From the NCBI GenBank assembly GCA_030142905.1, contig JASJOG010000017.1:1860001-1924000 (forward strand): a DNA stretch of 64,000 nt, given 5' to 3'. Within the stretch, counting starts at the first letter, position 1; each line of letters opens with the position of its first letter. Position numbers and translations under genes: made by a program. Positions 10,210-52,644 of this stretch are shown here, in pieces. Under the pieces are notes generated by a model. It ran no database searches. It worked only from the letters and a program-made list of their open reading frames with translations, and was not told the DNA's origin. The stretch is from Heliopora coerulea (taxonomy: Eukaryota > Cnidaria > Anthozoa > Scleralcyonacea > Helioporidae).

Positions 10210-10560
10210 TGTTAAGCTATCGAGTCCACAGGGATTGGAGGCAAGTTTGAACTAATTTAAGTGCACGAGATATTCCTTCGCAACAACTTAACGCTATCCA
10301 TGAGAGGATGTGCAGTGTTTCAATTCTATTTCAGAATCATCCTCAGAGATACACATGGAGAGAAACTTTTCATGAGAATCTGACACTGCTGAAGTCAACT
10401 GAAAAATGTTGACTCGAGCGAGATTTCAACTTGCACATTCTCTCACGGATAGCGTTAAGTTGTCGCGAGAATATCTCGTGCACTTAAACTGGATAAAACT
10501 CGCCTCAAATCCTGCGGACTCGATTGCTCAACAAGTAGAACGGCGGGGACCGGTATCCCA
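10210..10560. repeat. SINE family B foldback
   Basis: Two inverted arms (about 10210-10310 and 10437-10540) share atcgagtccacaggg-type, gtgcacgagatattc and aacttaacgctatcc segments in opposite orientation. The centre carries the family B body (gtgtttcaattctatttcag, tctgacactgctgaagtcaa, aaaaatgttgactcgag). The right arm ends in a degenerate tRNA head on the plus strand. This looks like two SINE copies inserted head to head, or a SINE that has become a foldback unit. Confidence 0.65.
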
Positions 10561-20810: not shown

Positions 20811-21779
20811 ATGACTTGGAAAGTCTTACTTGTTGGTCTAGTCATTACGTTGGTAAGAATAACACCCTACAATTGTGTTCCATCAACAAGATTCAACAAA
20901 GGTGAAGTACAAACAGATCGTCCAATAATCGGTGTACTGGCGCAGTCTGGCGAAGCTTTTAAGACGTTTGGCCCATCCTACATCGCCGCATCTTATGTGA
21001 AGTATTTGGAATCTTCTGGAGCAAGAGTTGTGCCGATAATGAACAATCTTACTGAAAAACAAATTGAGAAGTTATTTTATTCCATCAATGGCGTTCTATT
21101 TCCTGGAGGAAATGTTAATCTGGTGTCGTCGGGATATGCTAGAACAGCTCGCATCATTTACGAATTAGCAGTCAAATCTTTTAATCAAGGTGACTATTTT
21201 CCATTGTGGGGAACATGTCTTGGCTTTGAATATTTACTTGTCCTAGTGAGCAGTTCCCGCGACATTCTCTCCCACACAGATTCTTATAATTTAGTTTTAC
21301 CGCTAAATTTCTCGCAAGATTATCATAACAGCAGAATGTTTCGCGACATTCCGAATGGACTGGCAAAGTTTCTCAGTAGTGCTCCCACAACTGCGAATTT
21401 TCACCACTGGTCGGCTACCGTCAAGGCATTCAAAGAAGACAAGATAATAAATGAGTTTTTCACCATTTTATCAACAAACAGCGATAGAAATGGAATCGAG
21501 TTCGTGTCTACTATCGAAGCCAAAAAGTATCCCTTTTATGGCACCCAGTGGCATCCTGAGAAGAATTCTTTCGAGTGGACGTTACGAAGGAATATTCCTC
21601 ACCAGGCAATGTCCGTCAAGGTTACTCAGTATTTGTCCAACTTCTTTGTGAACGAAGCTAGATACAGTAAGCATAAATTCGAGACACTGGAAGAAGAAGA
21701 ATCCGCGTTGATTTATAATTATTGCCCGGTCTATACTGGGAAGATAGCAAATTTTGAACAGTGCTATATGTTCAACTAG
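20811..21779 (+). CDS. GGH: Gamma-glutamyl hydrolase, single exon
   Basis: Encodes a complete 322-residue class I glutamine-amidotransferase-like peptidase that removes gamma-linked glutamates from folate polyglutamates, normally in lysosomes or secreted. Residues 1-22 form a hydrophobic signal peptide (KVLLVGLVITLV). The family landmarks are in order: RPIIGVLAQ, the GVLFPGG block at 94-100, the nucleophile elbow WGTCLGFE with Cys136, and GTQWHPEKNSFEW with His248 and Glu250 completing the active site. Length and order match animal family members. The striking feature is the absence of introns: vertebrate homologues are split into many exons, so this copy may be a retrogene or a lineage-specific intronless paralogue. 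No poly(A) tract or AATAAA was seen close downstream. No stop or frameshift is present, so it is probably functional. Confidence 0.93.
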   Translation: MTWKVLLVGLVITLVRITPYNCVPSTRFNKGEVQTDRPIIGVLAQSGEAFKTFGPSYIAASYVKYLESSGARVVPIMNNLTEKQIEKLFYSINGVLFPGGNVNLVSSGYARTARIIYELAVKSFNQGDYFPLWGTCLGFEYLLVLVSSSRDILSHTDSYNLVLPLNFSQDYHNSRMFRDIPNGLAKFLSSAPTTANFHHWSATVKAFKEDKIINEFFTILSTNSDRNGIEFVSTIEAKKYPFYGTQWHPEKNSFEWTLRRNIPHQAMSVKVTQYLSNFFVNEARYSKHKFETLEEEESALIYNYCPVYTGKIANFEQCYMFN

Positions 21780-23239: not shown

Positions 23240-23425
23240 TGTATTTTAGAATCACCTTCGGAGATAAATGAACAGAAAGTTTTTCTTGATAATCTGACAC
23301 TACCAAAGTCAACTGAAAAATGTTGACTCGACCGATGTTTGAACTCGCACCTTCGGGATACCGGTTCGCCGCTCTATCTGTTGAGCTGTCGAATCCACAG
23401 GGATTGGTAGCGAGTTTTTATCCAA
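23240..23425 (-). repeat. tRNA-derived SINE (family B), best-preserved copy
   Basis: On the minus strand: tRNA-like head with A-box (cagctcaacagatagagcgg) and B-box (gtgcgagttcaaac), then the family body (gtcaacatttttcagttgac, agtgtcagattatcaagaaa). It lies just left of the Kolobok-like transposon, whose TTAA duplication falls in the SINE's upstream flank (gtcgcgacaactTAA). Confidence 0.75.
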
Positions 23426-23459
23426 CCTAAGCGCACGATATATTGTCGCGACAACTTAA

Positions 23460-23476
23460 AGTGTTTATGAAACCAA
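23460..23476 (+). repeat. Left terminal inverted repeat of the Kolobok-like element
   Basis: AGTGTTTATGAAACCAA directly follows TTAA at 23456-23459 and matches the complement of 28727-28743 at all 17 positions. Similarity falls off beyond that. Confidence 0.9.
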
Positions 23477-23712
23477 CTTTTATGTTTTCATTTTTTGTTT
23501 TAAATACGCAGTATAAACCTTAAAGAGCCTACAGTAAAAATTTTTTGGTCAATAAACCATTCTTTGTAGCGGAAAATTGCATCCTAAGAAGGCATTGTCC
23601 TCGTACGATCGTCAGCCATTTTGTGCGCGGCCAAATGGGCATGTGACGTCACTGGTTGTGTACTTGTTTAGTTCTGTGTTCACTTACGTATTTATTTCTA
23701 TATGCGTGAGCA

Positions 23713-26700
23713 ATGGAGCGCAAAGGTGTCACGCAAATGCAAATGAAAAAAAAGAGAGTCTCAGGTAAATATTGTGTAGGTGGAGGCCCTCAAAATGTCA
23801 GCTGTAACAACAGTTCGAAAACTCAGGGAATATCGATGCATAAATTTCCTCAGAACAAGAGTTCTCGAGAGCAATGGACGCGCTTTGTCCAACGACATCG
23901 AGCTAATTGGAAACCATCTGCGACATCTGTGCTTTGTTCGGCTCATTTCGAACCGTCCTGTTTCGAGCAGCGACTTGACTTGAATTTAGGGCAAACAGAA
24001 AATGCTTCCCAATTTAAGTCAAGAAGATGGTTGAAAAAAGACGCGGTACCGACGATCGATTGTGCGGGTGTTTCGACACAGAACGTTGGTTTGTCATCGC
24101 GTGAGCGCCGTGTGGTGAGTAAAATGCTTATGAATATGTATGAATTGACAATAATGTGAATGATAAAAAAAGCATATAGATATTAAGCCCTGACACGCCA
24201 AATAGACTAGGAAGTTTGCGTTTTAATTTCACGGCTTGCTCTCGAATTCATTTGAAATAATATTATTTTGGGTTTGTACACTGTCACGCAATTCTGGGTT
24301 AGAATTCTGTGAATTTATTTACATTTCGTCGTAGATAATGCGGGATTCAAATAAGGCAATACCCTACCCAACAGCAGCACAGGAATCTACGGAAAATTTG
24401 GAAGAGTTTGGAGAAGCTAACGTTTCTGTGATGGTATGTAGTGACGAAAACAACGACACCATTGAAGACGTTATATCACCATTGTCACGCACGCCGGTCG
24501 AAGCTCCTGTCGAGCCATGTGAGAAATGCGACGAGTATTCAGACAGACTGGAAAAGCTGCAAGACTCGCACCGCAAAATAAAACAAAGACGGGCTATTTT
24601 GGAAACAGAAGTTCGTCATTTGAGAAAACTAAATAAACAGTTACAGCGGGTATGCGTGCTTAGACTGTATAATTGTACAATGTTAATTTTAAAAGATCTG
24701 AAACATATTTGTGTCACTACTGTTTTACAGCAATTGACAGAGCTCAATAATGCGTGCACAGCAGAAGACAGTTTGTCCTCTGATAGTGACAGAAATGATT
24801 TTGATAGTGAGCACAGTGGTGAAGAAAAAGATGAGCCTAACTTGGAATTTGCTGATGATGAATGTGAGGAGGGTGAGGAAAAGAGGGAAGAAAAGGATTA
24901 GAGGAAGTTGAGAAGTTGAGAGAGCTGTTATTCAGACAGAACTGCTGTTATTTTACATTTTTGTGGTTAGAAACTAATCTGCCTCCCTATATTTTAGAAT
25001 GACCTTTATTACAAATTGGCCTTTTAGACCTTTGCATAGTAATGCTTACATTTTTTTTTTCATTTTCAGTGTGGAATCTGATGCCCTGCCTCAAGATGAG
25101 CCAACATTTGTTTTTTATAGTTGCCTGATAATGCTCTTCTCCCTCTTCTGTTATAATTGTAAAGCTGAGAAGCCAGGAGTAACTATGCAAAAAAATGGCA
25201 CCATGGTTACTGTAAACCAGCATTGCTCATCTTGTAAATCTGGTTTTACTTGGAAAAGTCAGCCATATCTATTTGGAAGGTACCCTGCTGGAAACATTCT
25301 CCTCAGCTTTTCAACTCTCATGGCCGGTGCTTCCATTAGTAAGGTTCTTCTGCTTTTCAGGCACATGAACTTGTGTGCATACAATATAAGGACATACTTT
25401 TACCACCAAAGCAGGTTCCTTTTCCCAGCTATTTTAGAACATTGGGAATGATACCAGTCATCACTACTGAGCAAAATTAAAAATATGGATGAAATAGCTT
25501 TTGCTGGAGATGGGCGGTTTGACTCAATGGGACATTCTGCAAAGTATGGAGCATATACAATGTTTACTTTTCCAGGAATGAAAATTGTACACTTCGAACT
25601 GTTACAGGTATGTTTGATCATAAAAACTTTTACAGGTGAATATTTTTCTTGCTGGCTTTTAGGGATGTTTTTTGTTAAACCCTGAATGTTAAAATTAGAA
25701 TCAAATATATAAAGTTTTAAGCTTGATTTATAATTTACATTGCTTCAAAATAATAAACAGTTCAGATTCAAATGTTAAACCGAGTTCTTATTTGATTAAA
25801 TTATGTCAAAAAATAAAAAATAAATTTGTTAAAAAAACCAAATATAAGTTATATGTTTACTTTTGCAAGCTATATTCAGTGTGCTGATGTTGTTATAGCA
25901 CAAGTGCATTGAAACCAGTGTTTAGCCTGTTTACTTTTCCAGGTTAAACTATATCTGTTCAAAAGTATAAAAATGAAAATTTATTGTTATTTCACACTAA
26001 TTTAAATATTTTTAGGCTAATCAAACCGGAAATAGCAATGCTATGGAGTTGAAAGGGGCTCAGTTGTGTTTTTCTCACGTGAAGGAGAGACAGATCATGA
26101 TAAAGGTGTTTGTGTCTGATCAGCATAAGGGGATTGCCAAATGGATAAGAGAATGGAACCTCTCTACAATTCATTATTTTGACCAATGGCACATAGCAAA
26201 AAATATTTCAAAGAAAATGTTTGCTGCCAGTAGACAAAAGGGATGTGAATTGATTGCAGACTGGATTCAGGCAGTTAAGAACCATGTATACTGGTGTTCC
26301 ACCTCCACTAAAGAAGGGTTCCAGTCAATGATACTGACAAAATGGAAATCTTTGATCCGCCACATCTCTGATTGCCACAGTGATCATCCTGATGGTTTGT
26401 TTACTGAGTGTGCACATGGTGATATAGAGCCACGGGAGTGGATAAAAAAAGGTGAACCAGCAACAGTTATTGACAACAGGCACTTTCAATATCATATCTC
26501 AGTTTATTATAGCTCATATTTAGCTTACATAATTACATTTGGTATTGCTTTCTAGGTACAATAGCATATGAGAAGATGCATGACATTTTGATGAAGAAGA
26601 CCCTGCTAAATGCCATCAAACACCTCTCACCAAATGCAGATACCAGCTGCTTGGAGGGTTTCACTCCACATTAAACCAGTGGCACCCCAAAATGTTATGC

Positions 26701-27544
26701 TTCTCATGGCTTGGAACATACTGCAGGTTTAGCAGGCCATAATATTTCAAGATTTCTCTTAATGTCATTATCAAGTTTTTATGATTTATCAAACAACCAT
26801 TGTTACAGCCAATCCAGTATTTTATTTGCACATCATTGATCAATTATGATAATACAGGCACATATTGGCTAGCCTTCACTTCAATGAAAACCTGTGAAGA
26901 AAAATCAGGAAAAGCAGAGATGGCACCAATTATGTGAATGTAGTGTATCCTAAATTCAAATTGGGAGATGAAGTTGTGAGAGAGGTTGCTGAGCCACCAA
27001 TGTATGGTAATTATTGATTACTGTTCATTTTGATGGTCCTGATTACAGTTGGAAAGGCCTTAAACTTGTTGTTGAAAGGCAAAACAATACCTCTGCTAAA
27101 AGTCTTTAAATTTTCTTTTAAGGTTATGTTTCAGATATCAAAATGGTAATGTTCAGCACTTCAAAAGCACAGAGAGAAGCAGTGAGAGAGCAATACAGCG
27201 CCAAGGTCCCTGAACCTCTGACTCACCAATTTCCTCAAAGGCACTCCAAAGATGAAGCCATTAAACGCCATTATGAGAGAAAGCAAACAAGAACAGAACT
27301 TTTTCCACCAGGTAATGCTAACAAAGTACACTCATAAATAATAAAGATAATAATAATAATGAATTTTTCAGTAAAAGGATCACTGATTTATTTTTTTTTA
27401 TATATAGCTGCTGAACAAATGCATTTGGAGGAAATTCAGCAAGAAGCTTCCACCAGCAGTGAGCCAAGCCAAAAGAAAAAAGCAAGGCAATGCAGAAAAT
27501 GTTTTAAAACAATGCGAGGCCATCCAAAAACCCATTGCCCTTGA
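23713..27544 (+). pseudogene. THAP-domain DDE transposase, nine exons, inactivated
   Basis: Inferred exons: 23713-24114, 24335-24649, 24731-~24890, 25071-25607, 26016-26451, 26556-26726, 26858-27006, 27123-27311 and 27408-27544, all near GT-AG sites except a GTTTAG donor after exon 6. Exon 1 holds a THAP zinc finger (Cys in KYC and VSC, Trp in EQWTRF, Cys and His in LCSAHF, closing AVPTI). Exons 2-3 encode a coiled coil and an acidic tail. Exon 4 carries AGDGRFDSMGHSAKYG with the likely first catalytic Asp; exon 5 has VFVSDQHKG with the second and HYFDQWHIAKN; exon 6 has SCLEGFHS-type sequence with a candidate Glu. The tail ends CRKCFKTMRGHPKTHC, a zinc knuckle. Damage: in-frame TGA at about 25448 and 26916, and a one-base loss near 26661. 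The phase at the exon 3/4 junction could not be fitted. No longer able to make its enzyme. Confidence 0.85.
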
Positions 27545-27626
27545 TAAAATTTGTATATATTTATAAAATATTTCCCTCTATTTACAATTTAAAAATGTGT
27601 GATAAAAAATTTCTACCCTTAGCATT

Positions 27627-28480
27627 TCAGTCGTCTGCTTCGGCACGTTCTTTTCCAGACTCATAGCCTTTTGATTCTGAAGTCGTGAATGTTTTTCTTA
27701 TGTGACCATACACGCAAGCTGGCAGAGGTCGTGTATTCTCCCATCCCATTCGACCGAATAACCAACGTGCCAACCAACGATATGAAACTGCCCTCAGGAA
27801 TCTAGATATTTTGGGTACATAGTAAGTTATATACTCGCCTGATTTGAACGGTAATAAAGAAAGCAAAACGTTCGAGTTGATAAAGAAAGTCTTTGATTTT
27901 CAAGCACACTCACTTGTTTTCGGCATTATCCGATCTTTCCCTCTGCTTGTAATACCTGCCATTTTTGTCTCGTAACAATGGCCCAGCCTGCAGAAGTACT
28001 GTACGATGTGTTAAAGGACCGAAATCATCATGGTTTAAAATACAGTCTCGATCTTTGCCGATGAATGTAAACTTTCCTGTCGCTTCTAACACCTCAAAGC
28101 AACACCGAAATTCACGAACGTTTATCAAATGTTCCACCTGGCAATTCCCACAAGAGCACCTGCATTCGCAATAAAAATACAAGATCAAATACATAAAATT
28201 AAAAAAATGTAGATGTCGATGTAAATTCTTACCAGCTTTCCACAGATAACTTCCCGCTAAATCGTTGCTCTAAGTCATATGGCAACAAGCCATCTTCGTC
28301 CTTTTCTTCCTCGTCGCCATGGCCATCGTCTCTTCTTTGGCGCTTAGCTAATGGCTCACCAGTATAAGGTGTGTACATTCCTCCGGCGACAAAATAACTC
28401 AGATTTTCATCAGAATCACTTCCCCAGCTAAAATTACTTTTTTCAAAGGAATCACTCGACGAATTCTCGCTATCAGACAT
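27627..28480 (-). CDS. P2X7-ballast-like zinc-binding domain protein, three exons
   Basis: Exons on the minus strand: 28480-28233, 28159-27914 and 27801-27627. All junctions are GT-AG with phases that agree (2, 2), giving 222 residues without a stop. Exon 1 encodes a Ser/Asp-rich acidic leader (MSDSENSSSDSFEKSN), a YTPYTGEPLAKRQRR segment and an acidic run. The exon 1/2 junction creates W-C-S-C-G-N-C, followed by FRCC and DCILNH; exon 3 gives RAVSYRWLARWLFG and LPACVYGHIRKTF. This order of Cys clusters, YRW..RW.FG and LPxCV...IRK.F is that of the cytosolic ballast domain of vertebrate P2X7 receptors, which binds zinc. There are no membrane segments, so it is not a channel. It lies inside the transposon, convergent with the transposase, and is better preserved than the transposase. 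Its role is unknown: an accessory transposition factor or a passenger. Confidence 0.8.
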
Positions 28481-28726
28481 GTTTTGATTTGTACAATTTG
28501 TACTACGTGTTCACGAACGACCTATGCGCTACACAACCACCGACGTCATCATCTTCTGCAACTTGGTTCAGGCCCCGGACGTGTTTGGAGGAATTCTTTC
28601 GCAGTAAAACGAACTTTAGAGGAAGATATTTTCTAATTTACAGCATTTACGAAAAAAACTAAAATAACCATCGGACTCAGCTCATTTTAAATTTTTAAAT
28701 GATACCAAAATGTCATATGCAAAAGA

Positions 28727-28743
28727 TTGGTTTCATAAACACT
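28727..28743 (-). repeat. Right terminal inverted repeat of the Kolobok-like element
   Basis: TTGGTTTCATAAACACT is the exact complement of the left end and is followed by TTAA at 28744-28747. Confidence 0.9.
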
Positions 28744-28752
28744 TTAAAAGTT

Positions 28753-29882: not shown

Positions 29883-29944
29883 TCAATACCATTATCAAAT
29901 ACACATGTCAGGATACTTTGAAAGAAATTTAATGAGGAACTAAC

Positions 29945-29974
29945 GTTTCGTCACTTTACAAGTAACATCATCAG
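29945..29974 (-). ncRNA. Hammerhead-ribozyme-like motif, left Penelope copy
   Basis: Minus strand: CTGATGA, stem gttactt/aagtgac (7 pairs, one G-T, loop of three), GAAACG. It is located about 140 bp 3' of the reading frame, identical to the motif in the right copy. Confidence 0.65.
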
Positions 29975-30113
29975 AGTGTCTATTTACATGAAAATTTTCG
30001 GCTTAAATAACCTACACGATTACAAAAATAGGGGTGAGAGAAGGAGAGAATGATGAATGAGGTGTCATGACAGGGATTAAGGTGGAGGAGAAAAGAAAAG
30101 AAAAGAAAAGCAA

Positions 30114-31516
30114 TTAGAATAACAAGAGAGGAAATGACCTTATATTTACGTTGAGAGAGGGATTTATTTTAGCAATCAGCAAACTTTCTCGAGTGAGAGT
30201 GTCTAATTCCGAACGGCCACTAGCTAAAACTGAGAAATCATCAAAAGAAATTGGGTGTCCAGTTTCTCTTTTATGTGTTAAAATGCTAGACAAAGAAAAT
30301 GGGTGAGAGATCTCATTTCCTGTGTGTGCCGAAATGCCCATGTGTTCACAGATCCTAGTGTGTAAGTTTCGGGTTGTTTCACCCACATACAACGCGGAGC
30401 AGCGTTGGCACGTAAATTTATAAATAACATTAGATCTTAAACGCATAGGAATACGGTCTTTAAAACGAAAAAAGTGTGAAAAACGGCAAACTGGTCGAAA
30501 TATTACTCGGAGGTCAATGTGTGGGTGGGCCGAAGATATTAACCTTAAAAGCTGTTGGCGAATTTTGAGGCCGTGAATACCAGTAAAAGGCAGTGCAATG
30601 GATAACTGCAATTTGGGTGCTGTGAGAGGTTTAATAGGTGTGTCGGAAACTTTATGTAAAAAAGAGCAAATACAATAGTCTATAAACCGTTGCGGATAAC
30701 CATTTTGAAGTAACAGGCTCTTAAATTTTGCAAGTTCTTCTTGAAAAATCGAATACGACGAACATATATTCAAATATCGAAATAAAATAGTATAAATTAG
30801 ACCTTTCTTGTAATTAACAGGCAAAAAACTCTCGAAATTTGTGAAAAGGCCGGTAAATGTTGGTTTTCGATAAACAGAGGTGATAAATGAGTCATTAGAT
30901 CGAGAAATAGTGATGTCAAGAAAGGGTAGCGTTTTGTTTGACTCCACCTCCCAGGTGAAGTTAATGTTGGGATGCTGTGAGTTTAAATAATTTAGAAAAG
31001 GTTCGATTTGCTCATGAGATTTGAATAAAATAAAAGAATCATCAACATAACGTCTATAAAAAAGCGGTTTGAAATCAGTGGGACAGTTTTTTAGCCAAAT
31101 TTTCTCATGGTGTGATAAAAATATGTTGGCAAGAAGTGGGCCGAGCGGTGACCCCATGGCGACGCCATCGATTTGGTCGTAAAGTTTACCATTGAAAACG
31201 AAATGACAATCCTTAACTGTTAAATTTAAGAGGTCTTTTAACTCTTTCCGAGAGAAGCCATGGAAAAGACGGTTGGTAGAAAATAGCTGGTCAAGAATAA
31301 TCTGTATGGTTTCATCAAGAGGAATATTAGTAAATAAAGACGTAACATCAAAACTGGCCATAATTAAGTCGTCGGTATTAAGGTCTAAGGAGAATAGTTC
31401 TTGAATAAAGGAAAACGAATTAATAATTACGTAAGAACTTAAAGAAATGGGATGAAGAAGCGGAACTAGAAACTTAGCTAGGTTAAATGAATGAGTTCCT
31501 ATTGCTGAGAGAATAG
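30114..31516 (-). CDS. Penelope-like reverse transcriptase with GIY-YIG endonuclease (left copy)
   Basis: Open from about 31516 (no start methionine; the frame is entered by truncation) to the stop at 30114; counted from the internal Met at 31361 it is 415 residues. Counted that way: SFDVTSLFTNIP at 3-14 and GVAMGSPLGPLLANIF at 66-81 are palm blocks, YVDD at 105-108 is the catalytic box, NYKKGLIYTILFRY is a thumb block, and VIYKFTCQRCSALYVGETTR at 312-331 with R336 and H340 is the GIY-YIG nuclease. The first residues of the finger domain (LYGLPKIHK) are missing, unlike in the right copy. Differs from the right copy at residue 284 (Leu versus Phe). No internal stop. Mobilises by target-primed reverse transcription, as known for the family. 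Confidence 0.85.
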
Positions 31517-33004
31517 GTCAAGAAAATAGCCCCCACAGGATCTCAACCAGGTATATTATATGGACTACCAAAGATTCATAAAGTTAACGTTCCACTTCGA
31601 CCTATTCTCTCAGCAATAGGAACTCATTCATTTAACCTAGCTAAGTTTCTAGTTCCGCTTCTTCATCCCATTTCTTTAAGTTCTTACGTAATTATTAATT
31701 CGTTTTCCTTTATTCAAGAACTATTCTCCTTAGACCTTAATACCGACGACTTAATTATGGCCAGTTTTGATGTTACGTCTTTATTTACTAATATTCCTCT
31801 TGATGAAACCATACAGATTATTCTTGACCAGCTATTTTCTACCAACCGTCTTTTCCATGGCTTCTCTCGGAAAGAGTTAAAAGACCTCTTAAATTTAACA
31901 GTTAAGGATTGTCATTTCGTTTTCAATGGTAAACTTTACGACCAAATCGATGGCGTCGCCATGGGGTCACCGCTCGGCCCACTTCTTGCCAACATATTTT
32001 TATCACACCATGAGAAAATTTGGCTAAAAAACTGTCCCACTGATTTCAAACCGCTTTTTTATAGACGTTATGTTGATGATTCTTTTATTTTATTCAAATC
32101 TCATGAGCAAATCGAACCTTTTCTAAATTATTTAAACTCACAGCATCCCAACATTAACTTCACCTGGGAGGTGGAGTCAAACAAAACGCTACCCTTTCTT
32201 GACATCACTATTTCTCGATCTAATGACTCATTTATCACCTCTGTTTATCGAAAACCAACATTTACCGGCCTTTTCACAAATTTCGAGAGTTTTTTGCCTG
32301 TTAATTACAAGAAAGGTCTAATTTATACTATTTTATTTCGATATTTGAATATATGTTCGTCGTATTCGATTTTTCAAGAAGAACTTGCAAAATTTAAGAG
32401 CCTGTTACTTCAAAATGGTTATCCGCAACGGTTTATAGACTATTGTATTTGCTCTTTTTTACATAAAGTTTCCGACACACCTATTAAACCTCTCACAGCA
32501 CCCAAATTGCAGTTATCCATTGCACTGCCTTTTACTGGTATTCACGGCCTCAAAATTCGCCAACAGCTTTTAAGGTTAATATCTTCGGCCCACCCACACA
32601 TTGACTTCCGAGTAATATTTCGACCAGTTTGCCGTTTTTCACACTTTTTTCGTTTTAAAGACCGTATTCCTATGCGTTTAAGATCTAATGTTATTTATAA
32701 ATTTACGTGCCAACGCTGCTCCGCGTTGTATGTGGGTGAAACAACCCGAAACTTACACACTAGGATCTGTGAACACATGGGCATTTCGGCACACACAGGA
32801 AATGAGATCTCTCACCCATTTTCTTTGTCTAGCATTTTAACACATAAAAGAGAAACTGGACACCCAATTTCTTTTGATGATTTCTCAGTTTTAGCTAGTG
32901 GCCGTTCGGAATTAGACACTCTCACTCGAGAAAGTTTGCTGATTGCTAAAATAAATCCCTCTCTCAACGTAAATATAAGGTCATTTCCTCTCTTGTTATT
33001 CTAA
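31517..33004 (+). CDS. Penelope-like reverse transcriptase with GIY-YIG endonuclease (right copy, longer)
   Basis: The frame is open from 31517, with TAG just upstream at 31514, to TAA at 33002. It therefore includes the finger block LYGLPKIHKVNVPLRPI, encoded in the spacer, ahead of the internal Met at 31757. From there it matches the left copy over 415 residues except Phe at 284. The palm YVDD, thumb and GIY-YIG modules are intact. The true N-terminus of the family is upstream of what survives, so both copies are 5' truncated, the left by about 26 more residues. Near-identity means very recent origin or ongoing gene conversion between the arms. Confidence 0.85.
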   Translation, partial: VKKIAPTGSQPGILYGLPKIHKVNVPLRPILSAIGTHSFNLAKFLVPLLHPISLSSYVIINSFSFIQELFSLDLNTDDLIMASFDVTSLFTNIPLDETIQIILDQLFSTNRLFHGFSRKELKDLLNLTVKDCHFVFNGKLYDQIDGVAMGSPLGPLLANIFLSHHEKIWLKNCPTDFKPLFYRRYVDDSFILFKSHEQIEPFLNYLNSQHPNINFTWEVESNKTLPFLDITISRSNDSFITSVYRKPTFTGLFTNFESFLPVNYKKGLIYTILFRYLNICSSYSIFQEELAKFKSLLLQNGYPQRFIDYCICSFLHKVSDTPIKPLTAPKLQLSIALPFTGIHGLKIRQQLLRLISSAHPHIDFRVIFRPVCRFSHFFRFKDRIPMRLRSNVIYKFTCQRCSALYVGETTRNLHTRICEHMGISAHTGNEISHPFSLSSILTHKRETGHPISFDDFSVLASGRSELDTLTRESLLIAKINPSLNVNIRSFPLLLF

Positions 33005-33143
33005 TTGCTTTTCTTTTCTTTTCTTTTCTCCTCCACCTTAATCCCTGTCATGACACCTCATTCATCATTCTCTCCTTCTCTCACCCCTATTTTTGTAATC
33101 GTGTAGGTTATTTAAGCCGAAAATTTTCATGTAAATAGACACT

Positions 33144-33173
33144 CTGATGATGTTACTTGTAAAGTGACGAAAC
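33144..33173 (+). ncRNA. Hammerhead-ribozyme-like motif, right Penelope copy
   Basis: CTGATGA at 33144-33150, stem gttactt-gta-aagtgac, GAAAC at 33169-33173, followed by gttagttcc. This fits the conserved hammerhead core. Penelope-like elements are known to carry such ribozymes in their terminal repeats, and the position 140 bp after the stop codon is consistent. Confidence 0.65.
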
Positions 33174-33319
33174 GTTAGTTCCTCATTAAATTTCTTTCAA
33201 AGTATCCTGACATGTGTATTTGATTATGGGCTTCTCCAAAATTATTTGCTGGGCAATAATCTTTATCACTAGACTTCGTTTTCCGCCTGGTATCTCGATT
33301 GCCGAAATCAATACCATTA

Positions 33320-51143: not shown

Positions 51144-52644
51144 GTCCAAGAAGATGTATGCGAGCCCAAGACATATCAAGAAGCCATCAACTCAGTAGAG
51201 GCCGAAAGTTGGGATCAAGCGATGCAAACAGAGTATGATTCACTTGTCGAAAACAATACTTGAACGCTTGTGGATAAACCAAAGCATAAAAAGGTCTTAC
51301 CTGGCAAGTGGGTGTACAAAGTTAAGTACGGACCAAATGGTCAAGTTGATAAATTCAAAGCCAGGTACGTAGCGAAGGGATTTGCACAAGTCGAAGGCCT
51401 ACATTTCTTCGAGACCTACGCCCCAACGTACAAACCAGAGACCTTTAGAATTTTATTGGGAATCGCAGCACAGAAGGATCTACACCTCGGCCCACTGGAC
51501 GTCAAGTCAGCCTACCTCCATTCACCAATTGAAGAAGAAATTTTGGTTGAGCAGCCCGAAGGTTGTACCAAAGAAGGAGAAAGCGGAAAAACACTAGTTT
51601 GTCCACTGAATAAGTCAATATATGGTCTCAAACAAGCAGCAATAAACTGGTACCAAGCCTTAACAAGTTTTCTTCTAAGTAAAGGTTTTCAACGCAGTCG
51701 CAACGACTATTGTCTGTTTGTCAGAAAAGAACCAGAAGACAAGTTCACGTATATACTGGTGTAGGTCGATGACGTTATAGTCGCTGGAGAGAACAGTGAA
51801 GCTGTTGATGCACTGAAGTCAGTATTCAAGGAAAGATTCAAGATGGATGATCGAGGCGAATTGTATTGGTTCTTAGGAATGCTAGTCAATAGATCGCAAG
51901 ACAAGATCACAATCGATCAAGAGAAATACATCCAAAGTGTACTGAACAAGTTCAAGATGAGTGACTGCAAACCTTTAGCCACACCTGCAGAAGTTAACCT
52001 GAAACTTGTAAAGAGTTTGCAGAAGTTTGGTTGGATCCCTACTTTTCATAAGTAAACAGACACGCCCAGATATTCTCAACACCGTCAATCAACTATAGCG
52101 GTTCCTCGAGAACCCCGATATTTCTCACTGGAAGCCAGGAAAACACCTACTGAGGTACCTGAAAGGAACGAGTCATTTGCAACTAACTTACTCAAAGAAC
52201 TCCACAACAGAATTATTGGGAGCTTCTAATGCAGATTGGAGTGGAGACATCAACGACAGAAAATCAACCACAGGCTACTATTTCAAGTTCCAAGACAATG
52301 GGGGAGAGATTAGTTGGAAAGTTAAAAAGCAACCAACAGTTGCACTCTCATCTACAGAAGTAGAATATCAAAGTATGGCAGAAGCATTGCAAGAAGCGAT
52401 ATACCTCAGAGCACTCATGCAAGATTTTGCCTGTCCGACCAAATTACCAACCGAAATTGGAGAAGATAACCAGTCATGTATAAAGATGTGTCACAACCCA
52501 GTAATGCACAAACGTTCCAAACACATTGATACGAAGTTACATTTCATCCGAGAAAGGGTAGAGAACGGAGAAGTGAGAATTCATTATGTTCTTATAGAAG
52601 AGATGACAGCGGACATCCTTACAGAGTTCCTACCTCAACCCTAG
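51144..52644 (+). pseudogene. copia reverse transcriptase and RNase H remnant
   Basis: Begins EAINSVEAESWDQAMQTEYD, has a stop at 51261 where Trp is expected (NNTxTLV), then KKVLPGKWVYKVKYG, FKARYVAKGFAQ and LGPLDVKSAYLHS, and the catalytic box where the Tyr before VDDVIVAG is a TAG at 51763. It continues with YWFLGMLV, a frame change near 52055, then RNase H blocks NADWSGDINDRKSTTGYYF, SSTEVEYQSMAEA and KHIDTKLHFIRE, ending in TAG at 52642. Non-functional. Confidence 0.88.

What the first reader, a model, noticed from the sequence alone, without database searches (positions are those of the whole stretch)
23456..28747. Complete Kolobok-like transposon carrying an intact P2X7-ballast-like gene
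TTAA on both sides and 17 bp perfect terminal repeats enclose a THAP transposase and a convergent three-exon gene whose product has the WCxCGNC...CC...YRW..RW.FG...LPxCV..IRK.F layout of the P2X7 cytosolic ballast domain. The transposase has at least two stops and a frameshift, but the ballast-like gene is open across all exons with matched phases. A mobile element bearing this domain would give a direct route for its spread across animal genomes and, possibly, its capture by a P2X receptor in vertebrate ancestors.
Basis: partly seen in the sequence, partly recalled or inferred. Interest (0 to 1): 0.8.

Follow-up and report, generated by a model that had tools for sequence, protein, structure and literature searches.

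The report
Coral Kolobok transposon with P2X7-ballast gene
This stretch is a decayed copy of a jumping gene (Kolobok) in what is probably a coral or its kin; it carries a second gene related to the inner tail of the P2X7 receptor, and that link between transposon and receptor was already published in 2022.

Summary
23456-28747 is a Kolobok DNA transposon: TTAA on both sides, 17-bp perfect terminal inverted repeats starting AG, a broken THAP/DDE transposase, and a convergent three-exon gene for 222 residues (KolX) that passes the Pfam P2RX7_C cut-off. A model of a coral relative (P0002) matches P2X7 and nothing else with weight in fold searches. The host genome (430 Mb, unnamed) holds 31 exact ends, in 12 facing pairs and 7 single ends. 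Leaving out one palindrome, all 9 pairs above 4 kb carry both genes. In a coral, a lancelet and an anchovy both proteins come from contigs of the same length, twice with consecutive locus tags. So the gene belongs to the element.

The reading is right but not new: Kojima and Bao (2022) reported that KolX of Kol0 Kolobok elements has the ballast fold and gave rise to the P2X7 tail.

The open gene beside a broken transposase means little: KolX is open in 6 of 13 copies, and pN/pS is similar for both genes (0.60, 0.71). Verdict: a new copy of a known kind.

The parts
23456..23459 (.). left TTAA target-site duplication
23460..23476 (+). left 17-bp terminal inverted repeat (AGTGTTTATGAAACCAA)
   Evidence: with TTAA, exact in 31 places of the host genome, 0 for the reversed control
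23713..24114 (+). transposase exon 1, THAP domain
   Evidence: PF05485 63.5 bits; donor site
24335..24649 (+). transposase exon 2
24731..24898 (+). transposase exon 3, truncated: its 3' end and donor (roughly 125 bp) are missing here, present in the 11 other copies aligned
25070..25607 (+). transposase exon 4 with the residue read as first catalytic D (GDGRFDS); in-frame stop at 25449-25451
26016..26451 (+). transposase exon 5 with the residue read as second catalytic D (SDQH) and DxxH (DQWH)
   Evidence: PF20700 23.8 bits, E 2.5e-5, under the curated cut-off of 26.5; alignment; splice sites
26556..26726 (+). transposase exon 6 with the residue read as catalytic E (CLEGF); frameshift near 26660
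26858..27006 (+). transposase exon 7; in-frame stop at 26895-26897
27123..27311 (+). transposase exon 8
27408..27544 (+). transposase exon 9, ends in TGA
27627..27801 (-). KolX exon 3 (FLRAVSYRW..LPACV..IRKTF), convergent with the transposase
27914..28159 (-). KolX exon 2 (cysteine-rich core)
28233..28480 (-). KolX exon 1 (acidic N-terminal part, start codon)
28727..28743 (-). right 17-bp terminal inverted repeat
28744..28747 (.). right TTAA target-site duplication

Best explanation
A non-autonomous (decayed) copy of a two-gene Kolobok transposon of the Kol0 type, in a genome that is probably anthozoan (the nearest named proteins are from stony corals). Shown: TTAA + TIR ends, THAP/DDE transposase, convergent KolX gene with the P2X7 ballast domain, many copies with the same two-gene plan. 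Inferred: the intact family moved by cut-and-paste; the THAP domain binds the element's ends and the DDE core cuts and joins at TTAA; KolX is a zinc-binding, helical accessory protein made by the element that helps or regulates transposition (no result here tests its job; I put about 0.6 on an accessory role of this kind). This copy can no longer make its own transposase and could move only if another copy supplied it. The P2X7 tail is a captured KolX, as published.
Confidence: 0.95

Rival explanations
1. The ballast-like gene is a host gene that was captured once by this copy (one-off passenger).
For: It is open while the transposase is broken.
Against: 11 of 12 facing pairs hold it in whole or in part, at the same place in the element; in other species it is encoded near the transposase (locus tags and contig lengths).
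Confidence: 0.01
2. KolX in this copy has been domesticated and is kept by host selection, while the transposase decays.
For: KolX has no stop, no frameshift and GT-AG introns here; pN/pS among 13 copies 0.60 (bootstrap 0.41-0.92).
Against: With 3 or 4 lesions in about 2.5 kb of transposase, no lesion in KolX is expected by chance in 45% or 34% of cases; transposase pN/pS is similar, 0.71 (0.54-0.96); KolX is also open in 5 other copies and damaged in 7.
Confidence: 0.04
3. The element is a piggyBac transposon (also TTAA) with a KolX-like gene; Kojima and Bao mention a few such families.
For: TTAA target; the cited paper reports proteins like the KolX C-terminus in a few piggyBac families.
Against: Ends are AG...CT, as stated for Kolobok and unlike piggyBac; the transposase has THAP and no piggyBac model was hit in the Pfam scan of its pieces; all seven cysteines are present, most of which the paper says those piggyBac versions lack.
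Confidence: 0.01

Closest known systems
Kolobok superfamily, Kol0 lineage (two proteins: DDE transposase and KolX); Kojima and Bao 2022, PMC9587614 (abstract, sections 3 and 10, and passages seen)
   Same: TTAA target, 5'-AG / CT-3' ends, DDE transposase with DxxH, second gene with the P2X7 ballast domain and seven cysteines; the lineage is reported from cnidarians
   Different: This copy has a broken transposase. The passages seen do not state the gene orientation for Kol0, so the convergent layout could not be compared
P2X7 receptor C-terminal ballast domain (Pfam PF20478; PDB 6U9V, 8TRJ, 9E3M and others)
   Same: Sequence profile, cysteines, predicted fold of a relative over 126-132 residues; arginines aligned with R546 and R578
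   Different: No channel part found in the 222-aa product; H547, R574 and K583 of the GDP site are not kept (counted by eye); own acidic N-terminal part
Zinc-coordinating domain (ZCD) and nanor-like proteins, Rump et al. 2020, PMC7016195 (passages seen)
   Same: Short proteins with the conserved Zn-coordinating cysteines across Metazoa, corals included
   Different: That main text has 0 occurrences of 'transpos' and of 'Kolobok'
KolobokP (same superfamily)
   Same: Accessory gene on the complementary strand downstream of the transposase
   Different: [quoted passage not shown] a search of the window for direct repeats of 60 nt or more found none at this element's ends

Membership tests
Kolobok superfamily | 4-bp TTAA target-site duplication | tested here: met
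   in the genome-wide search TTAA was part of the pattern, so those copies are not independent evidence on this point
Kolobok superfamily | termini 5'-RR and YY-3' | tested here: met
   AG...CT; definition
Kolobok superfamily | DDE transposase with C/DxxH between second D and E | tested here: met
   alignment with 11 relatives, positions assigned by eye; definition; the frame is broken in this copy
Kolobok superfamily | THAP domain | tested here: met
   PF05485 63.5 bits; given as usual for the superfamily in PMC6004289 (passages)
Kol0 lineage | encodes KolX with ballast domain | tested here: met
Kol0 lineage | transposase falls in the Kol0 clade of a tree | not tested
   no Kol0 reference transposase was at hand; two Xenopus tropicalis THAP proteins are among the hits at 29% and 31% identity
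P2X7 ballast domain (PF20478) | profile score above the curated cut-off | tested here: met
   31.8 against 23.5 bits
P2X7 ballast domain (PF20478) | seven cysteines of the two-zinc site | tested here: met
   seven cysteines in the window product at the positions conserved in A2. Against P2X7 five line up; the CC pair lines up only in the profile alignment.
P2X7 ballast domain (PF20478) | GDP-contacting residues R546 H547 R574 R578 K583 | tested here: not met
   only R546 and R578 are matched by arginine in the alignment (counted by eye), as Rump et al. state for ballast-like domains beyond deuterostomes
P2X receptor | channel domain | tested here: not met
   only PF20478 found in the 222-aa product at E up to 1

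The most novel reading that the evidence does not exclude
KolX-bearing Kolobok elements have crossed between distant animals (lancelet and anchovy copies are 74% and 73% identical in the two proteins, against 48-53% and 44-45% to the linked Oculina pair), so the ballast domain of P2X7 could have come from an element that reached an early vertebrate by horizontal transfer.
Probability: 0.12. Interest if true: 0.55.

Novelty: new member of a known kind. Interest (0 to 1): 0.25.

Why it matters
It gives a multi-copy example of the transposon gene from which the cytoplasmic tail of P2X7 (an inflammation receptor) is thought to come, and shows with numbers that the gene travels with the transposase within one genome and, by locus tags, in a coral, a lancelet and probably a fish. 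It confirms, and does not change, the published account.

Tried and rejected
First splice choice for KolX intron 2 gave an internal stop; replaced. A search of IMG/VR for KolX found no relative. PDB profile search with the first alignment found nothing at E 0.01. The first structure model was weak (pLDDT 56.2), though its first 14 fold matches were P2X7 (E 5.5e-3 to 7.7e-2). Correlated divergence of the two proteins across 7 pairs was not significant; three of those pairs share only a contig length. The idea that KolX is specially preserved was dropped.

Locus L034 (C135) was dropped from the KolX and pN/pS counts. It is a palindrome that includes its 200-bp flank (identical to its reverse complement for 855 nt) and showed no KolX match. 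still contains it, wrongly aligned; with it the pooled pN/pS were 0.78 (KolX, 14 copies) and 0.70 (transposase, 12 copies). I tested only L034 for palindromy. A host-wide count of all KolX copies was never obtained.

Full-text searches made: P2X7 + ballast domain, Kolobok + THAP + transposon + TTAA, KolX, Kolobok + coral + transposon, P2X7 + Kolobok, Kolobok + horizontal transfer (listing only). Recalled, from no call: which aspartates and glutamate are the catalytic ones (placed by eye), and the name Penelope-like under Noticed in passing.

Full report
WHAT IS THERE. The interval 23456-28747 is bounded by TTAA and by perfect 17-bp inverted repeats. Inside, on the plus strand, lies a transposase gene that I read as nine exons; every donor and acceptor except the lost end of exon 3 is GT or AG. 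On the minus strand, 82 bases beyond the transposase stop, ends a three-exon gene for 222 residues with GT-AG introns and phases 2 and 2.

TRANSPOSASE. The THAP exon scores 63.5 bits against PF05485; the exon with the second aspartate scores 23.8 bits against PF20700, under its cut-off of 26.5. In an alignment with 11 of the 45, the residues that I read as catalytic D, D and E and the DxxH motif are kept in the window (what defines the superfamily is taken). Damage in this copy: stops at 25449-25451 and 26895-26897, a frameshift near 26660, and loss of the 3' end of exon 3 with its donor. A stop at the first place is also seen in L032 and L033, and at the second in L047. The TAG at 24899 lies at the deletion.

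COPIES IN THE HOST. The host genome has 429.8 Mb in 769 contigs. The exact TTAA+17-mer occurs 31 times, 16 forward and 15 reverse, against 0 for the reversed pattern. These form 12 facing pairs (window included) and 7 single ends. TTAA was part of the pattern. I fetched the 11 other pairs and the 7 single ends. Ten pairs are longer than 4 kb. L034 (8111 bp) is a palindrome that showed no KolX. The other nine (window, L032, L033, L035, L037, L038, L039, L040, L041) carry transposase and at least 87% of the KolX codons. Two short pairs (L031, 2667 bp; L036, 1355 bp) are internal-deletion forms that keep parts of both genes (KolX 45% and 33%). Of the 7 single-end loci, 5 hold KolX in whole or part (L042, L043, L045, L047, L048) and 2 (L044, L046) are short end fragments. 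BLAST identities to the window's element are 93.7-96.8% for L032, L033, L039 and L042 and 96.8% or more for the others apart from the fragments L044 and L046, which suggests two subfamilies.

SELECTION. KolX is open (start, stop, both introns GT-AG, no stop, no frameshift) in 6 of 13 copies with over 80% of its codons: window, L039, L040, L041, L047, L048 (L034 left out). At least one in-frame stop is seen in the transposase of 9 of 11 copies with over 80% of its mapped codons; L037 and L048 show none (L034 left out). Frameshift counts for the transposase there are unreliable because of the exon 3 deletion in the window. Pooled pN/pS is 0.60 for KolX (13 copies, bootstrap 0.41-0.92) and 0.71 for the transposase (11 copies, 0.54-0.96); the bootstrap ignores relatedness of copies. 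Both genes look alike: mild constraint, as expected for recent copies of a formerly functional element that then decay. An undamaged KolX next to 3 or 4 transposase lesions is expected by chance in 45% or 34% of cases.

OTHER ANIMALS. Reading the tables by eye (45 transposase rows; 23 and 120 KolX rows, partly the same), six longest-contig lengths are shared between a transposase row and a KolX row. In two cases the locus tags are consecutive (Oculina ACROYT_G023277/ACROYT_G023278; lancelet Hypp6572/Hypp6571) and in one the numbers are 7 apart (anchovy LOC134437278/LOC134437285); the other three (Oculina, Montipora foliosa, Porites lobata) share only the length. The lancelet and anchovy proteins are 74% (501 residues) and 73% (205 residues) identical, which seems high for animals this far apart; horizontal transfer is one explanation, not tested.

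WHAT IS KNOWN. Kojima and Bao (Mob DNA 2022, PMC9587614; abstract, sections 3 and 10 and passages seen) state that Kol0 Kolobok elements encode KolX, that KolX resembles the P2X7 ballast with seven conserved cysteines, that the lineage occurs in cnidarians, and that P2X7 arose by fusion of a P2X4-like gene with KolX. The finding repeats, from raw sequence, a published link. Added here: one more family in one genome, its copy census, and the fold comparison.

MECHANISM. Inferred: cut-and-paste movement by the THAP/DDE transposase at TTAA, with KolX as an accessory factor. No result here tests what KolX does. This copy cannot make an intact transposase.

Noticed in passing
29889-31519 and 31599-33229: A 1631-nt inverted repeat (2 mismatches, 79-nt spacer) holding two head-to-head copies of a reverse transcriptase ORF (PF00078, 40.1 bits for the minus copy, the only one scanned; Penelope-like by eye). 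Either very recent or an assembly palindrome.
   Followed up: partly
L034 (host contig C135:88747-97257): A Kolobok copy that is a palindrome at its ends, including its 200-bp flanks (855 nt identical to the reverse complement): a second sign of palindromic assembly joins or inverted duplication in this genome.
   Followed up: partly
P0036/P0093 (Engraulis) and P0040/P0087 (Branchiostoma): Kolobok transposase 74% and KolX 73% identical between an anchovy and a lancelet, a possible horizontal transfer.
   Followed up: partly
20811-21776: Open reading frame of 322 aa matching Peptidase_C26 (61.7 bits), about 1.7 kb left of the element.
   Followed up: no
51264-51761: Reverse transcriptase piece (PF07727 RVT_2, 150.4 bits), Copia-type by recall.
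   Followed up: no
2286-2711: Satellite of about 43 copies of a 10-bp unit, 98% matches.
   Followed up: no
10367-10440 and 23281-23354: A 74-nt dispersed repeat, 85% identical; one copy lies about 100 bases left of the element.
   Followed up: no
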